Shown here one piece after another: positions 1 through 33,096 of a stretch of 43,092 nucleotides of DNA (the first letter of the stretch is position 1; every line of letters starts with the position of its first letter). The DNA lies in contig JAUSHL010000036.1 in assembly GCA_030648645.1 (NCBI GenBank), positions 1-43,092 of the forward strand, read 5' to 3'. The stretch comes from Candidatus Daviesbacteria bacterium. GTDB taxonomy: Bacteria; Patescibacteriota; Microgenomatia; Daviesbacterales; UBA10151. Made by a program: the position numbers and the translations under genes. The notes under the pieces were generated by a model that searched no databases, was not told the DNA's origin, and saw nothing but the letters and a program-made list of their open reading frames with translations.

Positions 1-3000
1 CCTCAACAAATTTGGGTCACAGGAAATTTAGGCTTTCTCTGGAATCCTCCCACAGTTGATTCAGCAGGGAATATATATCTTGGAACTGATATTGGGGGAG
101 TTATTTCCCTTGATAAAAATGGCACCAAAAAATGGGCTACCAATACTTTCCACCCCAATGACAGTGTTGTTTTAGATAATAATAACAATATTTATTACTC
201 TGCTTCAGGCTACCCTGCTAAAGTTTATTCCTATGATCAAAATGGCAACAAAAGGTGGGAATATAGTTTAGGAGGATGGGGAGGAAATAATGTTCCTACA
301 GGAGTAGCTTTATCCAGAAATAAAGATGTGCTTTATGTAGGGATAGCTTATCCATCTCAAACTTTGCTGGCTCTAAATACAGACGGAACTTTTAGATGGC
401 AACAGGACTCAAATTATAGTTCTCCCTCCTCTGCTCCAACTGTAGCTTCAGATGGAACTATTTATTTGGGGACAGGAAGCACAGGAATCATCATTGCCTA
501 CATGTCCAATGGCACTAAAAAATGGTACAGATATACAGGTACTTATGATATCAAAAATATTCTTTTAGATTCTAATAATAATTTATATGCCCTGACTTCC
601 AATGGTAACGGAGGTACTCTTTTAGCTTATAACTCAATAGGCACCAGACTTTGGACTTACCAACACGCAAGTGGTCTTTTTAATGGAGAGGGAGCTTTAA
701 AAAATAGTACTATTTATGCTGCTGTAAAAAATACTATCATTGCTGTTAATACTTCCGGAAATTTAGTTTGGACTTGGACAGTGCCTGTAACCGGAGCAAA
801 TAACTTAACCAGTCCGGTTATTGATAAGGATGGGAATATTTATACAAGTTATGGAAATATATTCTATGTTTTAAATCCAAATGGGACTTTAAAATGGGAA
901 GTACCTCTTGGCAGTTATCCCAGTTATCTAGGAAAACCTATTATTGTTGATAATAATTTAATTTATATTTACCAAAATGTAAGTGGTAACTGGAATGGTT
1001 ATTTACATGCTTTGGGAAAAATTACCCCAGATAAAACTCCAGTTATTTTTATTCCAGGGATAGGAGGATCAGAATTAAAGGTTAAAAATGATACTATTTG
1101 GTCAAATGATGATGGTCATGGAGGAACTTATAATCATGCATATCTTGCTGGGGAAAAAGTTTGGGTTAATGAAGGAGAAGGAGCAAACTTTGGAGATGAT
1201 GATTATTTTGATATTTTAAGATTAAAATCTGATGGGACTCAAGCAGAAGCAGAGTTAGAGTTAACAGGAGATATTTATGCTGGGGCATATGGGAATACCA
1301 TTAAATTTTTTACTGATAATGGTTATGTTTTAAATCAGGATTTATTTATTTTCCCTTATGATTGGAGAAAAGATATTGCTTTAATTGCTCCACTTTTGGA
1401 TCAAAAAATTGATGCTGTTAAAACTCAAACTGGGGCTACAAAAGTAGATATTGTGGCTCACTCTATGGGAGGGCTGGTTGCCAGAAATTATATTGCGGAT
1501 GCTAATAAAGCTTCAAAAGTCAGGAAATTAATTACTCTGGGCACACCACATCTGGGAGCAGTTAAATTCTTGAACACATTACAACATGGTGATTGTTTAA
1601 TTTATGGATTTGAATCATTTTGTCTTTCTATTGCTCCTTCAGAAATTAAGGATGTAATGCAAAATATGGTTTCTGGTTATGAATTATCACCAACTAAAAA
1701 ATATTTTGATTTTTATTCCGGAGAAGATAATTTACACCCATTTCCTTTTAATGATGTCAGAGATGTTGATAATAATGGAATTACTGGTTCGTTGAATTAT
1801 AATCAAACAAAAACATTACTTACTAATTTAAATTATCATACTAATCTTTTTAACTCCACAGAAACTTTTCATAACTTAGATAATGACTTAGACAAAACCA
1901 ATAATGTCGAAGTATCAATAATTGCAGGTTCAGGTATTGATACTTTAGGACAAATTATTGAAAAAAATGTAGTTGATTTTCTAGGAATTAAAATACCTAA
2001 AAAAGATATTCTTATCATCAATGGAGATGAAACAGTGCCTCTGCTTAGCGCTTCTTTAATTGATTCACATAAAAATATTTCTTTAGTTGGATTAGCCAAA
2101 GTTTATTACACCCAGCAAAAACATGGAAATTTAGTTTTTGATGGACCTGCTATGAAACTTGTTAAAAATATTTTAGATGGAAATTCAGATCTTCCTTCTG
2201 AAGTATCTTCAGAACCATATAAACTCATGGGGCAACAACTTTCTGTCCATTCTCCTGTTTTAATCAGTGCCTATGATGCAAATAATAATCATACCGGACC
2301 TTTAGATAATGGAGATTATGAAGAAAACATTCCCGGATCATCTTACGAGGTAATCGGTAATGCTAAATTTATCTGGCTCCCGGATAGTGGAGAGTATAAT
2401 CTTAAATTTGAGGCTACAGACAATGGTAGTTTTGATTTTAAAATTAGGACTTATGAAAATGATACCAATAGTAAAACCATTGTCTATAACAATATTCCTT
2501 TAACTACACAAACTAAAGCAGATGCCATTTATGATACTGCCTCAGCAAATCCTCCTTTAATTAATTTAGATGTTGATGGAAATGGAGTAGCTGATGCAGA
2601 AGTTGGAGCAACTGGAATAGTAACAGGTGCAGGTACTACAGATAGCACAGCTCCTGAAACATCCATTACTTTAACAGGGGAAATAAATAGTGACGGAACT
2701 TATAAAACTGATGTTAAGGTAGAACTATCTGCCACAGATAATAGTGCTGGAGTTGCTAAAACAGAATATTCTTTGGACAGTGGAACAACAATCAAAACTT
2801 ATACTGGATATTTTACTATTTCAGACAATGGTACTGCCAAAGTAAAATACCGTTCAATTGATAATGCCGGCAATGAAGAAAATCCCAAAGAAAAAGAAAT
2901 AATTATTAATAAACCATCTACTAGTTCCGGCTCTGATTCTGATTCTGATTCCAATAACTCATCATCTACCACTACCACATCATCAACAGATAGTAATAAT

Positions 3001-3231
3001 CAAACTGCAATTACCAATGAAATTAAAAAAGTTGTGTCTAATATTTTAAAAATTAATAATGAAGAAAATAATAATAATCAAATTTCTGATCGGATTTTTG
3101 AAAGTACTAATTCTGCAGTTTTAGGGGCAACAACTGAAAATAAAAATAGTAAAAATAATAATATTAATCCGTTAATATTATTACCTTTAATTATTTTAGG
3201 TGGTTTTATAATCTACAAAAGAAGAAGTTAA
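1..3231 (+). CDS. Partial (5' end outside window) surface protein: PQQ-like beta-propeller repeats + LCAT/alpha-beta hydrolase domain + OmpL47/Ig-like domain + Ser/Asn-rich linker + C-terminal TM anchor
   Basis: Frame 1 is open from base 1 through the listed ORF (e.g. PQQIWVTGNLGFLWNPPTVDSAGNIYLGTD); repeated G(T)xxW/NIYxxxG blades; TPVIFIPGIGGSEL and VDIVAHSMGGLVARNYI (GxSxG-like AHSMGG); TAPETSITLTG...EYSLDSG; C-terminal INPLILLPLIILGGFIIYKRRS. Confidence 0.8.
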   Translation, partial: PQQIWVTGNLGFLWNPPTVDSAGNIYLGTDIGGVISLDKNGTKKWATNTFHPNDSVVLDNNNNIYYSASGYPAKVYSYDQNGNKRWEYSLGGWGGNNVPTGVALSRNKDVLYVGIAYPSQTLLALNTDGTFRWQQDSNYSSPSSAPTVASDGTIYLGTGSTGIIIAYMSNGTKKWYRYTGTYDIKNILLDSNNNLYALTSNGNGGTLLAYNSIGTRLWTYQHASGLFNGEGALKNSTIYAAVKNTIIAVNTSGNLVWTWTVPVTGANNLTSPVIDKDGNIYTSYGNIFYVLNPNGTLKWEVPLGSYPSYLGKPIIVDNNLIYIYQNVSGNWNGYLHALGKITPDKTPVIFIPGIGGSELKVKNDTIWSNDDGHGGTYNHAYLAGEKVWVNEGEGANFGDDDYFDILRLKSDGTQAEAELELTGDIYAGAYGNTIKFFTDNGYVLNQDLFIFPYDWRKDIALIAPLLDQKIDAVKTQTGATKVDIVAHSMGGLVARNYIADANKASKVRKLITLGTPHLGAVKFLNTLQHGDCLIYGFESFCLSIAPSEIKDVMQNMVSGYELSPTKKYFDFYSGEDNLHPFPFNDVRDVDNNGITGSLNYNQTKTLLTNLNYHTNLFNSTETFHNLDNDLDKTNNVEVSIIAGSGIDTLGQIIEKNVVDFLGIKIPKKDILIINGDETVPLLSASLIDSHKNISLVGLAKVYYTQQKHGNLVFDGPAMKLVKNILDGNSDLPSEVSSEPYKLMGQQLSVHSPVLISAYDANNNHTGPLDNGDYEENIPGSSYEVIGNAKFIWLPDSGEYNLKFEATDNGSFDFKIRTYENDTNSKTIVYNNIPLTTQTKADAIYDTASANPPLINLDVDGNGVADAEVGATGIVTGAGTTDSTAPETSITLTGEINSDGTYKTDVKVELSATDNSAGVAKTEYSLDSGTTIKTYTGYFTISDNGTAKVKYRSIDNAGNEENPKEKEIIINKPSTSSGSDSDSDSNNSSSTTTTSSTDSNNQTAITNEIKKVVSNILKINNEENNNNQISDRIFESTNSAVLGATTENKNSKNNNINPLILLPLIILGGFIIYKRRS

Positions 3232-3232
3232 A

Positions 3233-3475
3233 TTATCTTTTTAAAAGCTTCTTCATTAATTTCCAAATTGCAAAAAGGATAATAAACCAAAAGATTATAT
3301 CTATAAAAAACATAAAATTATCTGTTGATCCACCTAAAAATGACCCAGTAGCAAACGTAAAAGGAACTCCACCATAACCAAGAAAGTGATTGTTCATCAA
3401 CCCCTCTGTAATTGCTACCCCATAGGTAACCACCACACTCAAAACCAAAAAAATAACAAAAGACTTTTTACTCAT
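3233..3475 (-). CDS. Small membrane protein, paralog A (MSKKSF...FWFIILFAIWKLMKKLLKR); start likely at internal Met, not 3511
   Basis: Two hydrophobic segments; paralogous to 4193-4435 and 5045-5386; stop lies 1 nt from the stop of the convergent hydrolase gene. Confidence 0.7.
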   Translation of the reverse strand: MSKKSFVIFLVLSVVVTYGVAITEGLMNNHFLGYGGVPFTFATGSFLGGSTDNFMFFIDIIFWFIILFAIWKLMKKLLKR

Positions 3476-3583
3476 TAATCTAACAATATCACATCTCTCC
3501 CTCCTCAACAACTAATTTAACCTTCCACATTTAGCCTTCCCAGGGGACGTCTGGAAGGCTACGTCTGGAAGGCTACAGATACC

Positions 3584-4192
3584 ATGGATAATACTGCTCC
3601 GGAAACATCTATTTCTTTAACAGGGGATACAAACAGTGACGGGTCTTATAAGACTGACATTAAAGTGGAACTATCTGCAGCAGATAATACCAATGGTTCA
3701 GGCATAGCTAAGATAGAATATTCCCTGGATAACGGGCAAACAACAAAAACTTATACTGATGTCTTTACCTTATCAGATAACGGCACTATAAAAGTTAAAT
3801 ACAGGGCAACTGACAATACCGGTAATGAAGAAAATCCCAAGACAAAAGAAATAATTATTAGTAAACCATCCGGCAGTTCTAGCTCTAATTCCGATTCTAA
3901 TAGCTCATCATCGACAACATCTACCAGCAGTGATAATCAGAATAGTTTCGGTAATCAAACAACCGCAATAGTTGCCAATGGAGTGAAGAAAGTTTTATCC
4001 AATATTTTAAGTTTTAATAATGATAATAAAGAGAATAACAATGATAAAATCTCTGAAAGTATTAATTCCGCAGTTTTAGGAACTAAAACAGAAGGCAAAA
4101 ATACTAAAAATAATAGTATTAACCCATTAATATTTTTGCCTGTGGTTATTTTAGGAGGTTTTATTATCTGCAAAAAGCAGTTTAAAACTTGA
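3584..4192 (+). CDS. 5'-truncated copy of the surface hydrolase 3' end (Ig-like domain + linker + TM anchor)
   Basis: TAPETSISLTGDTNSDGSYKTDIKVELSA...INPLIFLPVVILGGFIICKKQ closely matches the C-terminus of the 1-3231 product; no signal peptide. Confidence 0.75.
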   Translation: MDNTAPETSISLTGDTNSDGSYKTDIKVELSAADNTNGSGIAKIEYSLDNGQTTKTYTDVFTLSDNGTIKVKYRATDNTGNEENPKTKEIIISKPSGSSSSNSDSNSSSSTTSTSSDNQNSFGNQTTAIVANGVKKVLSNILSFNNDNKENNNDKISESINSAVLGTKTEGKNTKNNSINPLIFLPVVILGGFIICKKQFKT

Positions 4193-4435
4193 CTATCTTT
4201 TTAGAAGTTTACCAACTAGTTTCCAAATCCCAAATAGAATAATAAACCAAAAAATAATATCTAAAGATAACATTAGATAATCTGTGTTAGCATTAGAAAA
4301 TAATGACACTGAAGTGAATGCAAAAGGAATTCCACCTTGATTAGCCGTTTTATCCATCATAAACACCACTACTGAAACCATAAGAGTAATTATCACACTC
4401 AAAACCAAAAATATAATAAAAGATTTTTTACTCAT
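4193..4435 (-). CDS. Small membrane protein, paralog B
   Basis: MSKKSFIIFLVLSVIIT...DIIFWFIILFGIWKLVGKLLKR; tail-to-tail with 3584-4192. Confidence 0.7.
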   Translation of the reverse strand: MSKKSFIIFLVLSVIITLMVSVVVFMMDKTANQGGIPFAFTSVSLFSNANTDYLMLSLDIIFWFIILFGIWKLVGKLLKR

Positions 4436-4585
4436 AATTAGATTACATCTATTCTAGAATATCACAATTCCCCCCAAATCAACAACTATTTTTTATTCCA
4501 TTAAATATCCGTTCCTCCAATGTGAAACATTCATTTTTTAGGCTAGCCTCCCAGAGGACGTCTGGGAGGCTAAACAGAATATTCT

Positions 4586-5044
4586 TTGGATCAAGAGACA
4601 ACGGTCAAAACTTATACCGGCTCTTTTACTCTGTCGGATAATGGAACCATAAAAATTAAATATCACTCAATTGATAATGCCGGTAATGAGGAAAGTCCTA
4701 AAGAAAAAGAAATAACTATTAATCAATCATCCAGCAATTCCGAATCTAATAACTCAGTTTCCACATCCACAAACAACAGCAATCAAGATACCTCCAATAA
4801 CCCAAATATAGTCGCAAATGAAGTTAAAAAAGTTTTATCTAATATTTTAGATTTTGGAGATGAAGAGAAAAATAATGATCAAATCTCTGAAAATAATGAT
4901 TCGGAAGTTTTGGGAATACAAACAGAAGCTAAAAATAATAATATTATTCAAAATATATTAAATTTTCTTCATAAAAATAAATTTATATTTATACCGGTGA
5001 TAATTATTGGGAGCCTAATTATCCACAAAAAGAAGTTAAAATAA
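4586..5044 (+). pseudogene. Second, shorter 5'-truncated copy of the surface hydrolase 3' end
   Basis: TVKTYTGSFTLSDNGTIKIKYHSIDNAGNEESPKEKEITIN matches the 1-3231 C-terminus; homology starts at 4573 (AACAGAATATTC) directly after a hairpin. Confidence 0.6.
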
Positions 5045-5386
5045 CTATTTTTTTAGAAGTTTACCAGCTAACTTCCAAATTCCAAAAAGAATAATAAACC
5101 AAAGAATTATGTTGATAGCACAAATTAAATAATAAATGTTATCAGTTTGGCTTATATTTTGAGCGATAGGATAACCAGTCTCAGAAATTGATGTTGAATA
5201 TAATGAAATAGAAGAATTTTTAAATACAAATACTTCTACTAAAGCCTGTATAACTCGTGAAATATACCAAACCACCACACTTAAAACCAAAAATATAATA
5301 AACTTATTTAACTCGAGTTTACCACTCTCATTAAATAGCTTGAACCCAAAATGAAATATTTTGGGTATAAAAGACTTTTTGTTCAT
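5045..5386 (-). CDS. Small membrane protein, paralog C (longer N-terminus)
   Basis: KFIIFLVLSVVVWY...NIILWFIILFGIWKLAGKLLKK; tail-to-tail with 4586-5044. Confidence 0.65.
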   Translation of the reverse strand: MNKKSFIPKIFHFGFKLFNESGKLELNKFIIFLVLSVVVWYISRVIQALVEVFVFKNSSISLYSTSISETGYPIAQNISQTDNIYYLICAINIILWFIILFGIWKLAGKLLKK

Positions 5387-5571
5387 TTATTAAACCTTAT
5401 TATTTAGACTTTACTTATTTTAGAATATCACATCTTCCTCAAATCAACAACATTCCAGTAGAACCTTTATCTTTTTTTAGCCTCCCATAGCCTCCCAGAC
5501 GTCCCCTGGGAGGCTATGTCCGCAGATGCTAAGCCAATTCACCCTAAGGATGGAAACCTCAAGAACCAAAT

Positions 5572-23560: not shown

Positions 23561-23629
23561 GAAAAAACTATAATTAGCTTCCCAGACGTCCTCTGGGAGG
23601 CTGTTACCATGTTTGTATATTATGAAAAA

Positions 23630-23715
23630 TATCACACCCTTGGGGTGTGATATTAAACCCCCCTTGGGGTGTGATATTAAACCCTTGGGGTGTGATATTA
23701 AAGTGTGATATTAAA
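23630..23715. repeat. Tandem (CCCTTGGGGTGTGATATTAAA)n minisatellite seeded by a hairpin
   Basis: ATATCACACCCTTGGGGTGTGATATTAAA then successive CCTTGGGGTGTGATATTAAA units; the hairpin is also at 22918-22940. Confidence 0.85.
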
Positions 23716-26447: not shown

Positions 26448-29400
26448 ATGACAAAAAGAGCAGAAAAACAACTTACGCGTGAACAAGCTTGGGAAATCGG
26501 GAAAAATATTTCCCCTGTGCCAAATGATTTAAAGAATCCGGAGTTATCAGAAACTGCTCTTTATATTAGTAAAACAAGATATGCCAAAAGAGATATAAGT
26601 GGAAATCCGGATGAGACTGCCAAAAGTATGTTTTGGAGAGTAGCTTACAATATTGCCTGCGCAGATTTACAATTTGATGCCGATAAAAAGCATTTGGATG
26701 AAACTGCCAAAACTTTTTATCTGGCAATGGCTTCTCAAAAATTTATTCCCAATACTCCAACTTTGCTTAATGCCGGTAAACCAATGCAACAACTTTCGGC
26801 CTGTTTTGTTTTGCCGATTGAAGATGATATGAAATCAATTGGTAAAACTTTAGTGGATATGATCATGATTCATAAATCAGGTGGGGGTTGTATCTCAGCA
26901 GATGCCAGAGTTTGGAGTACTTTTTGTGGCATAGAACCAATTGAAGTGTTATTTTCTCGAGCTACAGCAGATGGTCGAAAAGGTATACCGCAAGGTTTAG
27001 GTATTGCTTATGATATTAAAGACCTGAATATTGAGACTGTTTCCATGGACCCAAAAAATGGCAAAACAGGTTTAAAAAAAGTCTCTCATGTTTGGCAATA
27101 TAATGTGCCTATGGAAGATCAATTAATGGTAACTACAGTTGAAGGTACATTGGTTCAAACTAGCCGTTGGCATCCTTTTATGGTAATAAAAGGGACAAAA
27201 ATAATCAAAGTTAGAGCTGATGATCTAGTCTCTGGTGATATTGTTCTTGGTCCGGATAAAGCAGATGAATATTGGCCTTGGAAAGAACAGAGAAGTGTTA
27301 GAGATATAAAAATAGATTCAGATTTTGCCTGGTTGATTGGTTTTACTTTAGGTGACGGATCATTTGGTTATGTTCCTTCTCTTCGACAATACAGAGTACG
27401 TTGGTTTTCCGGCACCAAAGATGTTCTCGAAAAGGTTCAAAATGTACTCGCTAAATTAAACATCAAAGTATCAATCCAAAAAGATCACAGGGGACTACTG
27501 AGTGTGGCTACTTTGAATCAAAAATTTGTTCATAGTCTATTGGAAGCATGTGGATTGGAAAAATTTGGTCCAAAAGATAGTCTAATTAGAGTACCTGAAA
27601 TAATTTCCAAGTCTCCACTTCAAATAATAAAAGCTTTTTTAGCAGGTCTTTTGGATAGTGATGGTTATGTAGCAGGTGATGGTAGTCCTTCTTATTGCAG
27701 TGTTTCTCAAGCAATGATTGAGGATTTAGCAGCTATGGTTTCCCTTTTAGGTTATCATTCATCTACGAAGACGAAAAATCCTTATGGAAAAGGTAAGTTG
27801 CCAACTTATATTATCCAAATTTGTCCTCTGCCACAAGTTAATCAATTAGCGGTGGATCTGACACCATATATGGCTAATGATTTGCGTAAGGGTAGACTTC
27901 AAAGTTCATCGCGAAGACAAACTGCTTTGCCTTTAGATTTTAGATTGTGGAGGGACACATTAGTTAGATTTGGCTTATCTATTGTCAGAGGAACTAAAAG
28001 TAAAGGCAGGGGGATATGTGCAGACCAGCTTTCTGTGTGGGCATCCCATAATCGGGTTAATCGTGATGACATTGATTTTATTGCTAAGCGTCTTTATAAA
28101 AAAAATAAAGCTTTATCTGTTTTACTTGAGCGAATTGCTAAAACAGGTCAAGAGATTAAGACAATAACTAAAGCACCTGTCGCAAAAACTTATTATGATT
28201 TATCGGTTGATAAATGGAATACCTATGCTGCTGGTCAGTCTGGTTTATTGATGATCCATAATACAGGTTTTTCTTTTTCTAGCTTGCGACCATATGGTGA
28301 TACTATTGCTTCATCCGGCGGAACAACTGTCGGTCCAACTTCTTTTTTGCAAGCTTATAATGATGTAACTTCTCAGATTAAACAGGGTGGAGTAAGAAGA
28401 GGAGCAAATATGGGGATTTTACATATCACTCATCCTGATATTTTAAGATTTGCAGTGATGAAAGTTGATGAATTTTCCCTGACTAATTTCAATATTTCCG
28501 TATCAGTTACAGAAGATTGGATGAAACAGGTGCAACTTGATAGTAAATATGTGGTAGAGGAACCGCAGTGGGATGAAATTATTGAAGAAATCAAAACTGC
28601 TGAGGCAATCCGTGATGTTGATTTAAAATTAAAAAAAGTTGAAGATGGAGTCAAGAAATTATATGAATTGGTCAAGTCAACTCACGATGATGAAGGCTAT
28701 GAACTTATTAATCCCCGAACCGGCAAGGTCACAGATAAGTTAAATGCCAAAAAAGTCTTTTTGCTTATTACGCAACTAGCTTGGCATTATGGTGATCCGG
28801 GGATGATTATAATTGATCGGATTAATAATTCTAAGGCTAATCCGACTCCTTCTTTGGGTATGATTGAATCAACAAATCCGTGCGTTACAGGAGATACACT
28901 AGTTGCTACGGAGGATGGTTGGAAACGTGTTGATAAGATCAAAATAGGTGTACGTATAAGTACAGTGCTGGGAAGTGGTCTAGTGAATAAAATTGAATTT
29001 CACAAGAATTGTTCTGTTTTTCGGGTAAAGTTTTCTGATGGTGCGGAAGTGAAAGTAACAGCAGCACATCAGTTTCATGCAATTGTACGTGAAGAGAGAA
29101 TAAAAAATTCTGCTAATAAAAAATTTACTCCACTAAGACTTGATCAATTAAAAGTGGGAGATATGGTAAGAGTTGCTCCTGCCTTTATGCCAGATAAGCC
29201 TGTATTGGATTTACCGAATGGATGGAGTGAAAAAGAATATGGATTTTTTTTAGGGGTTTTATTAGGAGACGGCTGTATAACACAAACTTCTATTGAAAGG
29301 AATGTAGTTAAAATAGCAGTTAATACTGAGGAAAAGGAATGGACTGAAATAATTCGAAATATTTTAAAGAAGGCTGGATCTAGGTTTGTTAGTTTGGATA

Positions 29401-31523
29401 CCAGTGGAGGATTATCAGCTAATTTGACTGTTCAAAATAGTAATGGAGCTGTACTTTTAGTTAAACAATCATACCTTAAACCAGCATATTCTTATGAGAA
29501 ATATATTCCAGAGGAATATTATCAAACAAACAGAGAATTTCTAACAGGACTTTTAGATGGACTATTTAGCACAGACGGAAATGTAAATTTAACAAGTACT
29601 CACCCGTCTTTAAGATTAAAAACTACCAGTAAACAATTAGCCTTGGGTATTCGAAGAATCTTACTTTATTTTGGAATTCATGGAAGGATTGTAACTATTA
29701 AAAAAGTTGCAGATAGTCATATTGGTAAAAGAATTATTATTTCTAAACATCAACAATATGAAGTAATAATTTCTGGAGCGAGTATGAAAATTTTTGTGCA
29801 ACAGATTAGTCTTTCTCATCCAAATAAACAAAAAAAGACGCATGATGCACAACTAAAATTTGCTTTAACCGGTAATACTTGGTTAACTCAGATTGTTTCT
29901 ATTGAACCGGTTGGTGTAGAAAAAGTTTATGATTTGTATGAGCCGGTTTCGGATACATGGAATACAGAAGGTGTTATTTCTCGTGGATGTGGTGAACAAC
30001 CACTGCTTCCTTATGATGCCTGCACTTTAGGGGGAATTAATGTTGGGAAACATGTAAAAAATGGGGCAATTGATTGGGAAACTTTAGGGGAGACTATAAA
30101 ATTAGCCGTGCATTTTTTAGATAATATCTTGGATATGAATAATTATCCGATCCAAGCTGTTAATGATATGACCAGACAAATTAGAAGAATTGGTTTGGGA
30201 ATGATGGGTTTTGCAGATTTATTGGTGCAATTGGAGATTGGATACAACACTGATGAAGCTCTAAAAATGGCAGAAGAAATAATGGGGTTTATTAATGAAA
30301 AAGCCAGACTTGCCAGTATCGAACTTGCTAAGGTGAGAGGCACTTTTTTGGCTTGGAATGGTTCAATCTATGATCCAAAAAGTCAATATTTTAAAGGGGA
30401 AAATTTAAAAGTAAGAAATGGAGCAATTACCACTATTGCTCCAACAGGTACAACTTCAATGTTGGCTGATGCATCTTCCGGTATTGAGCCTTATTTTGGT
30501 ATTTCTTATGCTAAAAATACTATTGAAGGAAAAAGACTGTTTAATACCAATTCTTTTTTCTTGAAAATAGCACAGGATGAAGGTTTTTATAGTGAGGAAT
30601 TATTGGCCAAGATTGAAGAAAATCATGGATCAGTACAAGGGATTGATGAAGTTCCCCTAAAATGGCAGAAAGTTTTTGTGGTATCTCATGATATTTCACC
30701 TCTCTGGCATGTCAAAATTCAGGCAGCTTTTCAAAAACATGTTGATAATGCAATTTCTAAGACCATTAATTTTTCTCATGATGCCACAGTTGAAGATGTC
30801 AGAAAAGTTTATATGATGGTTTATGAGCTGGGGTGCAAAGGAGTGACTATTTATAGAGATGGATCCAGAGAGAAACAAATTTTAGAAACTAAAAAAGATA
30901 GTTCATATTATGATCAATTAACTGCGGGAACAGTAGTTAAATCAAATGGAATAGCAGTTGAAGCACAGGATACTTTAGGAGAAAGACCAATGATACTTCG
31001 GGGCAGAACTTACAAAATTAATACTCCGGTAGGTGAGGCTTTTGTCACCATAAACCGGGATAATAAAGATCAATTATTTGAAGTATTTGTTACAATTGGC
31101 AGGGCAGGGATGCACACATCAGCCGATGCTGAAGCTATTGGTAGGTTGGCATCTTTGGCTCTCCGGAGAATTTCCCGGACTGATGCTAATTCAATTGCCA
31201 GAAAAATTGTTGGCCAATTAAAAGGGATTGGGGGATCTTCACAAATTGGTTTTGGTAAAGAAAGAGTGATGAGTTTGGCTGATGCTATTGCCAAAGCTTT
31301 ATCAGAGGAATTATCTTTGTTGGAATCTACCGGAACAGAAAAAAGTCAGGCTGAAGTAATACCTTTGGGTTTGACAACTGAAGAAACAAATGGGGTACAG
31401 GAAAATTTAGTGACTTCGGTGGAAAAAGTGGTAGCTGATTTTTGTCCGGAATGCGGTCAGGCAACATTTGTCTTTACTGAAGGATGCAAGAAATGTCACA
31501 GCTGTGGGTATTCAATGTGCTAA
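26448..31523 (+). CDS. nrdJ: Adenosylcobalamin-dependent (class II) ribonucleotide reductase containing two inteins
   Basis: TPTLLNAG, HKSGGG/TGFSFSSLRP, NP/CGEQPLLPYDAC, ITTIAPTGTTSMLA; C-terminal Zn ribbon CPECGQ...CKKCHSCGYSMC. Confidence 0.93.
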   Translation: MTKRAEKQLTREQAWEIGKNISPVPNDLKNPELSETALYISKTRYAKRDISGNPDETAKSMFWRVAYNIACADLQFDADKKHLDETAKTFYLAMASQKFIPNTPTLLNAGKPMQQLSACFVLPIEDDMKSIGKTLVDMIMIHKSGGGCISADARVWSTFCGIEPIEVLFSRATADGRKGIPQGLGIAYDIKDLNIETVSMDPKNGKTGLKKVSHVWQYNVPMEDQLMVTTVEGTLVQTSRWHPFMVIKGTKIIKVRADDLVSGDIVLGPDKADEYWPWKEQRSVRDIKIDSDFAWLIGFTLGDGSFGYVPSLRQYRVRWFSGTKDVLEKVQNVLAKLNIKVSIQKDHRGLLSVATLNQKFVHSLLEACGLEKFGPKDSLIRVPEIISKSPLQIIKAFLAGLLDSDGYVAGDGSPSYCSVSQAMIEDLAAMVSLLGYHSSTKTKNPYGKGKLPTYIIQICPLPQVNQLAVDLTPYMANDLRKGRLQSSSRRQTALPLDFRLWRDTLVRFGLSIVRGTKSKGRGICADQLSVWASHNRVNRDDIDFIAKRLYKKNKALSVLLERIAKTGQEIKTITKAPVAKTYYDLSVDKWNTYAAGQSGLLMIHNTGFSFSSLRPYGDTIASSGGTTVGPTSFLQAYNDVTSQIKQGGVRRGANMGILHITHPDILRFAVMKVDEFSLTNFNISVSVTEDWMKQVQLDSKYVVEEPQWDEIIEEIKTAEAIRDVDLKLKKVEDGVKKLYELVKSTHDDEGYELINPRTGKVTDKLNAKKVFLLITQLAWHYGDPGMIIIDRINNSKANPTPSLGMIESTNPCVTGDTLVATEDGWKRVDKIKIGVRISTVLGSGLVNKIEFHKNCSVFRVKFSDGAEVKVTAAHQFHAIVREERIKNSANKKFTPLRLDQLKVGDMVRVAPAFMPDKPVLDLPNGWSEKEYGFFLGVLLGDGCITQTSIERNVVKIAVNTEEKEWTEIIRNILKKAGSRFVSLDTSGGLSANLTVQNSNGAVLLVKQSYLKPAYSYEKYIPEEYYQTNREFLTGLLDGLFSTDGNVNLTSTHPSLRLKTTSKQLALGIRRILLYFGIHGRIVTIKKVADSHIGKRIIISKHQQYEVIISGASMKIFVQQISLSHPNKQKKTHDAQLKFALTGNTWLTQIVSIEPVGVEKVYDLYEPVSDTWNTEGVISRGCGEQPLLPYDACTLGGINVGKHVKNGAIDWETLGETIKLAVHFLDNILDMNNYPIQAVNDMTRQIRRIGLGMMGFADLLVQLEIGYNTDEALKMAEEIMGFINEKARLASIELAKVRGTFLAWNGSIYDPKSQYFKGENLKVRNGAITTIAPTGTTSMLADASSGIEPYFGISYAKNTIEGKRLFNTNSFFLKIAQDEGFYSEELLAKIEENHGSVQGIDEVPLKWQKVFVVSHDISPLWHVKIQAAFQKHVDNAISKTINFSHDATVEDVRKVYMMVYELGCKGVTIYRDGSREKQILETKKDSSYYDQLTAGTVVKSNGIAVEAQDTLGERPMILRGRTYKINTPVGEAFVTINRDNKDQLFEVFVTIGRAGMHTSADAEAIGRLASLALRRISRTDANSIARKIVGQLKGIGGSSQIGFGKERVMSLADAIAKALSEELSLLESTGTEKSQAEVIPLGLTTEETNGVQENLVTSVEKVVADFCPECGQATFVFTEGCKKCHSCGYSMC
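26889..28262 (+). mobile_element. Intein 1 (LAGLIDADG type) in the ribonucleotide reductase
   Basis: Starts Cys (CISADARVW), ends LLMIHN before Thr; DOD motifs WLIGFTLGDGSFGY and FLAGLLDSDGYV; exteins join as HKSGGG-TGFSFSSLRP. Confidence 0.93.
28881..29987 (+). mobile_element. Intein 2 (LAGLIDADG type) in the ribonucleotide reductase, noncanonical C-terminus
   Basis: Starts CVTGDTLVATEDGW, TAAH block B, FFLGVLLGDGCI and LLDGLFSTDGNV; ends WNTEGVISRG before CGEQPLLPYDAC. Confidence 0.9.
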
Positions 31524-32454: not shown

Positions 32455-33096
32455 TCAGATATCTTCAATTAACTGGTGTTGAATAAATTCCAGATCATAG
32501 CTTGCTTGGTCAAAAATGAATTGCTGATAATCTTTGGGGTCTTTAAATAAACTTAGAATATCTTTTTTAAAACAAAAACCATTGAAGTTGGGATCAATAT
32601 ATTCTGAATATGATGACCATCGATAGTAGTTAAGATCTTTTGTTAAATGTGAAGAAATTGGATTAAGATGAATATATCTAGAGATGTGGATTAATTGAGT
32701 GTCATTTTCTATTGAAACAGCTTTAAATACACCCTGTAATAATGGTCCTACTCTATTATGTTTAGTATTGTAATATTTTGTATAACTGTTGAAAGATTTA
32801 TTCATAAATTCAGTAATACCACCATCCCTAATTTGCTTTATTAGTAGATGAAAATGATTAGGCATTAGGCAATAATTAGCAATTTCTACTATTTTTTTGG
32901 TTTCATCTAATTTATTTACTATTAAATTAGGAAAATTTGAAAATTTTGGTTTTGGTCCTTCTATTTGATAATATTTTAATGTTTTGAGGAATCTTCGATA
33001 ATCCGAGGTATCTTCAAAAATCCTTCTTTTTTCACTACCTCGATTATAAATATGGTAATACTCTCCTATAACAAATGGGATAAATCTATACGGCAT
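32455..33096 (-). mobile_element. REP-associated tyrosine transposase (RAYT, Y1/HUH family)
   Basis: YYHIYNRGSEKRRIF, YCLMPNHFHLLIKQ (HUH), SRYIHLNPI, YRWSSYSEY. Confidence 0.92.

What the first reader, a model, noticed from the sequence alone, without database searches (positions are those of the whole stretch)
2640..5400. Three tandem [surface-protein 3' end + tail-to-tail small membrane protein] modules
The Ig-like/linker/TM-anchor 3' end of the surface hydrolase recurs as 5'-truncated copies at 3576-4192 and 4573-5044. Each copy is followed, with 0-1 nt between stops, by a convergent paralogous small membrane protein (3233-3475, 4193-4435, 5045-5386). Conserved zero-spacing convergence in diverged copies suggests the pair is a unit: either a duplicated cassette or a surface-anchor reservoir that could recombine with the full-length gene to vary its C-terminus.
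Basis: partly seen in the sequence, partly recalled or inferred. Interest (0 to 1): 0.8.

Follow-up and report, generated by a model that had tools for sequence, protein, structure and literature searches.

The report
Orphan surface-gene tails with partner genes
In a tiny groundwater bacterium (Daviesbacteria-like), a cell-surface lipase gene and a small membrane-protein gene that face each other tail to tail form a pair conserved across related bacteria, and here extra copies of the pair have lost the front of the lipase gene exactly at small mobile palindromes, leaving a row of orphan 'lipase tail plus partner gene' modules that still swap sequence with the complete copies.

Summary
One full LCAT-type surface hydrolase gene (ends 3231) and two 5'-truncated tails (to 4192 and 5044) are each followed tail to tail, at 0-1 nt, by a paralogous small two-helix membrane protein gene.

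New here: (1) The pair is a real conserved unit. All 21 close hydrolase orthologues with their 3' end on a contig (Davies-, Levy-, Roizmanbacteria) have the small gene convergent, gap -45 to +7 nt; distant LCATs do not. (2) Both truncation points abut a REP-type palindrome whose cognate RAYT transposase is in the genome. The fusions lie at C|T, the known REP-transposase cleavage site. (3) A second array on contig C19 repeats the pattern. (4) The tails are mosaics of the full-length paralogues (PHI p<0.0005), so they are not simple local duplicates. (5) Two other genomes independently keep only 'tail + small gene'.

Best model: a hydrolase with a dedicated membrane partner, most likely a cis-inhibitor or immunity protein. 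Extra pairs lose the hydrolase by REP-edge deletion, keep the small gene, and recombine with full copies. Partner function is inferred, not shown. The anchor-reservoir idea is partly supported (exchange shown, dedicated purpose not).

The parts
1..3231 (+). Full-length surface hydrolase gene C3A (5' end off the contig): beta-propeller-like repeats, LCAT alpha/beta hydrolase with catalytic motifs AHSMGGL / GDETVPL / QKHGNL, OmpL47-type Ig-like domain, S/T/N-rich linker, C-terminal transmembrane anchor
3233..3475 (-). Small two-helix membrane protein gene a, convergent with C3A, 1 nt between stops
3480..3516 (-). Conserved promoter-like box of small gene a (TTGTTG-17-TATTGT; the TGTGATAnTnT box near the ATG recurs in relatives)
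3532..3575 (.). REP1: REP-type palindrome with duplicated right arm; its 3' foot GGC|TA is fused to tail B
3574..4192 (+). Tail B: 5'-truncated surface-gene 3' end (complete OmpL47-type domain, linker, anchor), open frame, no signal peptide; Ig part closest to C44, anchor closest to C3A/C19A
4193..4435 (-). Small membrane protein gene b (orphan), 0 nt from tail B
4544..4572 (.). REP2 palindrome; its 3' foot GGC|TA is fused to tail C. The same junction and flank occur on contig C19
4571..5044 (+). Tail C: 5'-truncated surface-gene 3' end that begins inside the OmpL47-type domain (profile positions 21-68 of 68), open frame without ATG start
5045..5386 (-). Small membrane protein gene c (orphan), with an in-frame N-terminal extension from a dispersed repeat
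5295..5370 (-). Copy of a dispersed ~80-110-nt two-hairpin repeat (58 core matches in the genome) inserted in frame in small gene c; same insertion in the C44 small gene
5488..5516 (.). REP3 palindrome, opposite orientation to REP1/REP2, closing the array
32455..33096 (-). A RAYT-type (Y1_Tnp) transposase gene flanked by its own, different palindrome; one of 12 in the genome. The one flanked by the REP1-3 family is on contig C28

Best explanation
The core is a conserved convergent gene pair: a Sec-exported, LCAT-type lipase/acyltransferase on the cell surface, and a small membrane protein made from the opposite strand under its own promoter. [Shown: pairing, orientation, abutting or overlapping ends, conservation, promoter-like box, intact catalytic motifs.] The small protein is predicted to have two membrane helices with an outward loop carrying a beta-hairpin. 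Its most likely job is to hold back the hydrolase of its own kin at the membrane, as a cis-inhibitor or immunity protein. [Inferred.] In this genome the pair has multiplied to 6 small genes, 4 LCAT loci over cut-off and a further 5' gene part. Surplus pairs lost the front of the hydrolase by a deletion or joining event running from the 3' foot of a REP palindrome to a C|T site inside the gene. [Junctions shown; RAYT catalysis inferred from the C|T rule and the cognate RAYT.] What remains is an orphan module: hydrolase tail plus intact small gene. The orphan small genes stayed open with omega below 1. The tails are overwritten by gene conversion with the full-length copies and so stay open. [Mosaicism shown; its being the cause of openness inferred.]
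For: Pair conservation; gap -45 to +7, median -4. Hydrolase and small-protein identities correlate, Mantel r 0.75, p 2e-4. Independent promoter-like box near the ATG across genera. Model of the small protein: helix 3-27, strands 42-45 and 48-51, helix 53-79, pLDDT 81. Catalytic Ser/Asp/His motifs in nearly all orthologues. Orphan formation: REPs at both truncations in the window and at the C19 one; a different gene, the C19 exonuclease, is 5'-truncated at a degenerate REP on C11. Junctions are C|T, C|T and C|A, the cleavage sites reported for REP transposases (PMC8266576). A C28 RAYT is flanked by this REP family. Orphan small genes intact; orphan-orphan pair b vs C19T omega 0.18, and omega is higher in the loop (0.63) than in the helices (0.31, 0.15). 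Mosaic tails: PHI 0.339 against 0.509 sd 0.0085, p<0.0005. Independent 'tail + small gene' remnants in G013 and G017. Parallels: displaced effectors leave immunity-gene arrays, in one case with the effector's 3' end (PMC5361080); bacteriocin immunity genes can lie downstream on the opposite strand (PMC5358913).
Against: No biochemical or expression data for the inhibitor role. Pfam, NCBIfam, PHROGs, PADLOC and PDB give the small protein no confident relative. In two of three genomes that lost the hydrolase the small gene also decayed (G017, G012), which fits a partner or chaperone better than orphan immunity. One LCAT gene in this genome (C11, 859 aa) has no small gene. Pairwise omega cannot be assigned to the time after orphaning. 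RAYT involvement rests on junction position; 2-4-nt microhomology at a palindrome would look the same.
Confidence: 0.5

Rival explanations
1. Plain decay: tandem full-length pairs were broken by REP-associated deletions and the tails are pseudogenes kept open only because the events are recent; the small gene is a general partner (folding, export or anchoring of the hydrolase) and the orphans are on their way out.
For: Tail C and the C19 tail start inside the Ig-like domain and have no normal start or signal peptide. With neutral divergence of 0.05 per site a tail of that length still has a 39% chance of no stop. The hydrolase is lost and the small gene decayed in G017 and G012.
Against: Tail C and the C19 tail share a junction whose flank is 87.5% identical, while their 4-fold sites are only 60% identical (18/30). 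If both were neutral at that depth, open frames would be improbable. All three orphan small genes are intact, with promoter-like boxes.
Confidence: 0.28
2. One reading: the tails are silent cassettes that by gene conversion regularly vary the Ig/linker/anchor end of the expressed surface hydrolase, as in pilS/pilE-type systems.
For: Three anchor types among six copies; the C19 tail shares its last ~100 nt with the full C44 gene at 92-95%, yet most of its first half with C3A at 85-90%; PHI p<0.0005. Tails stay in frame.
Against: Mosaicism is not confined to the region covered by tails: 5' parts of the full genes are mosaic too. No relative carries such arrays; each of the other 21 loci has a single small gene. 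The 3' end is not more variable than the middle of the hydrolase. Anchors and linkers are poor candidates for exposed variation.
Confidence: 0.15
3. The REP-tail-small-gene-REP block is itself a mobile cassette moved by the RAYT, like a composite IS200/IS605-type element.
For: Tail B and its small gene lie between REP1 and REP2 in the same orientation; the same [small gene, REP, tail] junction exists on two contigs.
Against: Tail C lies between inverted REPs; the C19 orphan has no REP on its far side. The shared junction includes flank outside the REP, which points to a copied locus rather than a cut-out cassette. No empty site known.
Confidence: 0.08
4. Assembly artefact: short-read joining at repeats made the tails.
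For: The assembly is fragmented and C3 and C44 both break inside this gene family.
Against: Two separate contigs carry diverged versions of the same junction with homologous unique flank; each joined piece keeps an intact small gene.
Confidence: 0.03

Closest known systems
Orphan immunity-gene arrays and displaced effector 3' ends (T6SS of Vibrio cholerae; Rhs and CdiA orphan modules)
   Same: One full effector-like gene followed by a row of intact partner genes, with truncated 3' pieces of older effectors; mosaic exchange between modules
   Different: Convergent instead of same-strand genes; surface-anchored LCAT hydrolase instead of a delivered toxin; the tails are conserved, not polymorphic toxin domains; truncations sit at REP palindromes; immunity function untested
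Bacteriocins with the immunity gene on the opposite strand (pore-forming colicins and pyocins)
   Same: Small membrane protein encoded tail to tail with the effector from its own promoter
   Different: No pore-forming domain; 2 predicted helices; no sequence relation found; LCAT enzyme
REP/RAYT (TnpAREP) systems and REPINs
   Same: Palindromes of about 30 nt, cognate Y1-type transposase flanked by the same palindrome, junctions at C|T
   Different: Loop carries ACGTC but no GTAG tag was identified; here the palindromes mark gene-truncation points; the host is a bacterium of the Candidate Phyla Radiation
Silent-cassette antigenic variation (pilE/pilS)
   Same: 5'-truncated copies next to a full surface gene, with mosaic sequence exchange
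   Different: Every cassette carries a separate intact gene on the other strand; no evidence of regular switching; exchange not limited to the cassette region

Membership tests
LCAT-type alpha/beta hydrolase (PF02450) | Profile match over cut-off and Ser-Asp-His catalytic motifs | tested here: met
   58.9 bits against cut-off 21; AHSMGGL, GDETVPL, QKHGNL
REP/RAYT system | Short palindrome in many intergenic copies | tested here: met
   11 copies at up to 3 mismatches, 0 in the reversed-pattern control; DNA hairpin z -3.5 to -7.7
REP/RAYT system | Y1-type (HUH) transposase gene flanked by the same palindrome | tested here: met
   C28 RAYT flanked by this palindrome family
REP/RAYT system | GTAG tag at the palindrome foot | tested here: inconclusive
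   Feet read TAG...CTA and the loop carries ACGTC; no conserved GTAG seen
REP/RAYT system | Cleavage and strand joining at C|T next to the palindrome | not testable with these tools
   The three fusion sites align at C|T, C|T and C|A, consistent only
Effector-immunity pair with orphan immunity genes | Tight, conserved linkage of effector and small partner gene | tested here: met
   21 of 21; 23 of 28 in the family survey, 4 of the other 5 explained
Effector-immunity pair with orphan immunity genes | Partner gene kept when the effector is lost | tested here: inconclusive
   Intact in G013 and in three orphans of this genome; decayed in G017 and G012
Effector-immunity pair with orphan immunity genes | Partner protein neutralises effector | not testable with these tools
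   Needs expression assay
Silent-cassette antigenic variation | Sequence exchange between cassettes and the full gene | tested here: met
   PHI p<0.0005 and patchwise identities
Silent-cassette antigenic variation | Unidirectional, frequent change at an expression locus | not testable with these tools
   Only one genome of the genus is held
Silent-cassette antigenic variation | Exchange confined to the cassette region | tested here: not met
   5' regions of full-length paralogues are mosaic too
Known family of small membrane proteins | Match to a curated family | tested here: not met
   No confident match in Pfam, NCBIfam, PHROGs, PADLOC or PDB

The most novel reading that the evidence does not exclude
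A REP/RAYT system acts as the engine that turns surplus hydrolase-partner pairs into orphan partner modules: the transposase joins the REP foot to C|T sites inside the hydrolase gene, and the resulting tails serve as conversion donors for the full-length copies. The partner is an undescribed family of membrane immunity proteins against surface lipases of Candidate Phyla Radiation bacteria.
Probability: 0.2. Interest if true: 0.85.

Novelty: new variant of a known kind. Interest (0 to 1): 0.62.

Why it matters
It names a conserved but undescribed gene pair in the Microgenomates, whose interactions with other cells are largely unknown, and gives a testable role to a small membrane protein that no family library covers. 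It also links REP palindromes, usually treated as passive repeats, to precise gene truncation that leaves partner genes behind. If the small protein restrains the surface lipase, the arrays would be orphan-immunity arrays in bacteria without the usual toxin-delivery machines.

Tried and rejected
Sequence and fold searches for the small protein gave no relatives. A viral-contig search with the tails returned only two distant Ig-type hits; the small-protein alignment was too variable for that scan. A sigma-70/terminator scan showed nothing above chance and no terminator between the convergent genes. Whole-genome download was not available, so loci were searched and taken piecewise. Simple local tandem duplication was rejected on mosaicism and the shared insertion with C44. 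Misassembly was judged unlikely because two diverged contigs share the junction. For the four short small genes alone the PHI test was not significant (p 0.22, 28 informative sites). I first read small gene c as a separate 'long' subtype; its extra N-terminus is an in-frame copy of a dispersed repeat.
Full report
Observation. The three modules are as described. The full surface gene C3A runs off the contig start and ends at 3231; tails B and C end at 4192 and 5044; small genes a, b and c end 1, 0 and 0 nt from them on the other strand. The shuffled expectation for such sites in the window is 0.00.

What the genes are. C3A has an LCAT-type hydrolase (58.9 bits against cut-off 21) and an OmpL47-type Ig-like domain, with beta-propeller-like repeats in front and a C-terminal hydrophobic anchor. 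Tail B holds the whole OmpL47-type domain, but tail C and its counterpart on contig C19 begin at position 21 of 68. The small protein has no confident match in Pfam, NCBIfam, PHROGs, PADLOC or PDB. Its AlphaFold model (pLDDT 81) is helix, beta-hairpin, helix, with basic ends; the positive-inside rule puts the hairpin loop outside (inference). G-x-P in the loop and a Trp in helix 2 are invariant in the 21- and 24-sequence alignments.

The pair is a unit. Of 28 LCAT loci, 23 have the small gene convergent at their 3' end; three more are cut by contig ends (G029, G032, G063), one has a transposase gene in between (G009:C50), and one is a true exception (G000:C11). In a scan of a named genome collection, which overlaps the first set, all 21 close orthologues with their 3' end on the contig (HMM E of 4e-160 or lower; Davies-, Levy- and Roizmanbacteria, plus contigs labelled Microgenomates, Patescibacteria and one Ignavibacteria) have it; distant LCATs, starting with Gottesmanbacteria, do not. 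The distance between stops is -45 to +7 nt. Identities of the two proteins correlate (Mantel r 0.75, p 2e-4), as joint inheritance predicts. A promoter-like box, TGTGATAnTnT near the ATG, often with TTGTTG upstream, recurs across genera.

Arrays in this genome. The genome has 6 small genes, where relatives have 1-3. Contig C19 carries [full gene C19A, small gene, REP, tail, small gene]; C44 a full pair with a REP-like palindrome beside the small gene; C11 a fourth gene's 5' part with a REP upstream of it. The C19 tail starts at the same nucleotide as window tail C, and the flank outside the REP is shared (49 of 56 nt), so this truncated junction is old enough to exist at two loci.

REP junctions. 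Aligned with parental sequence, the fusions read GGC|TACAG (parent GTAC|TACAG), GGC|TAAAC (parent TTGC|TAAAA) and, for a 5'-truncated copy of the C19 exonuclease gene on C11, GGC|AAATG (parent CAGC|AAATG). TnpAREP enzymes cleave and join at C|T beside the REP, and one also at C|A (PMC8266576). The genome has 12 Y1-type transposase matches, and the one on C28 is flanked by this palindrome family. REP-edge deletion by the RAYT is therefore plausible; microhomology-mediated deletion at a hairpin is not excluded.

Mosaicism. Across the six surface 3' ends, PHI is 0.339 against 0.509 (sd 0.0085) in 2000 permutations, p<0.0005. The C19 tail is 85-90% like C3A over most of its first half but 92-95% like C44 in its last ~100 nt. 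Tail B is 90% like C44 in part of the Ig region and 76-83% like C19A in the anchor. The fourth gene on C11 switches from C19A-like (83-88%) to C3A-like (96-97%). Small gene c and the C44 small gene share an in-frame insertion of a dispersed repeat. Hence the modules are not simple local duplicates, and full and truncated copies share one recombining pool, though some exchange may predate truncation. 4-fold sites of tail C and the C19 tail are only 60% identical (18/30) against 87.5% in their shared flank, as expected if the tails were overwritten after the junction formed; flank constraint could also explain it.

Selection. Surface 3' ends have omega 0.18-0.37, including the two truncated copies against each other (0.37); small genes 0.18-0.89, highest when the divergent c/C44 type is compared with the short type. 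In the four short small genes the loop (0.63) evolves faster than the helices (0.31 and 0.15). A neutral simulation gives a 39% chance of no stop in a tail-C-sized frame at 0.05 substitutions per site, 4% at 0.2 and 0.4% at 0.45. The tails have either been under constraint or conversion, or are younger than their synonymous divergence suggests.

Independent orphans. G013, without any LCAT match, keeps a 179-aa Ig-only tail convergent at 0 nt with an intact small gene; G017 has an 88-aa tail fragment at 0 nt from a small gene broken by a stop; G012 has a small-gene remnant. Losing the hydrolase from its 5' end while the tail and small gene stay longer is recurrent.

Mechanism. I favour a surface lipase with a membrane cis-inhibitor or immunity partner: an anchored lipase faces its own membrane, the partner has its own promoter-like box and an outward variable loop, and its copies outlive the enzyme. 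The architecture matches immunity arrays left by displaced effectors (PMC5361080), and opposite-strand immunity genes are known for bacteriocins (PMC5358913). This step is inference. A folding or export partner is the main alternative, supported by decay of the small gene in G017 and G012. The anchor reservoir is possible as a by-product; a dedicated switching system is unsupported.

Limits. Only one genome of the genus is held, so age and polymorphism cannot be measured. Function of the small protein and RAYT action need experiments.

Noticed in passing
window 5295-5370 (minus strand); L051 about 3010-3075; L052 small gene; 58 matches genome-wide: A dispersed ~80-110-nt repeat with two hairpins (TTATACCCAAAAT...ATTTTGGGTTCAAaCcATTTAAcGAG...TCGAGTTAAATTGGTTTAT) sits in frame inside two small-protein genes, adding about 30 aa, and between the convergent stops of the C19 pair; reminiscent of coding palindromic elements of Rickettsia (from memory)..
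   Followed up: partly
G000, 12 loci (L012-L019 among them; window 32455-33096): Twelve Y1/RAYT-type transposase matches in a 0.96-Mb genome; most of those inspected are flanked by their own distinct palindrome family.
   Followed up: partly
L053 (G000:C11) 1300-1590: 5'-truncated copy of the C19 exonuclease gene plus the small-gene promoter box, next to a degenerate REP; the small gene itself is gone and an unrelated 95-aa membrane ORF lies there.
   Followed up: partly
window 26448-31523: Ribonucleotide reductase-like ORF of 1691 aa that appears to contain two intein-like insertions (CISADARVWS..., CVTGDTLVAT...); judged by eye only.
   Followed up: no
L157 (G009:C50): IS30-type transposase gene between an LCAT gene and a 182-aa variant of the small protein: a conserved convergent pair apparently split by an insertion.
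   Followed up: partly
window 23576-23602, 23630-23700: Another copy of the REP1-3 palindrome next to tandem ATATCACACCCTTGGGGTGTGATATTA palindromes of a second family.
   Followed up: no
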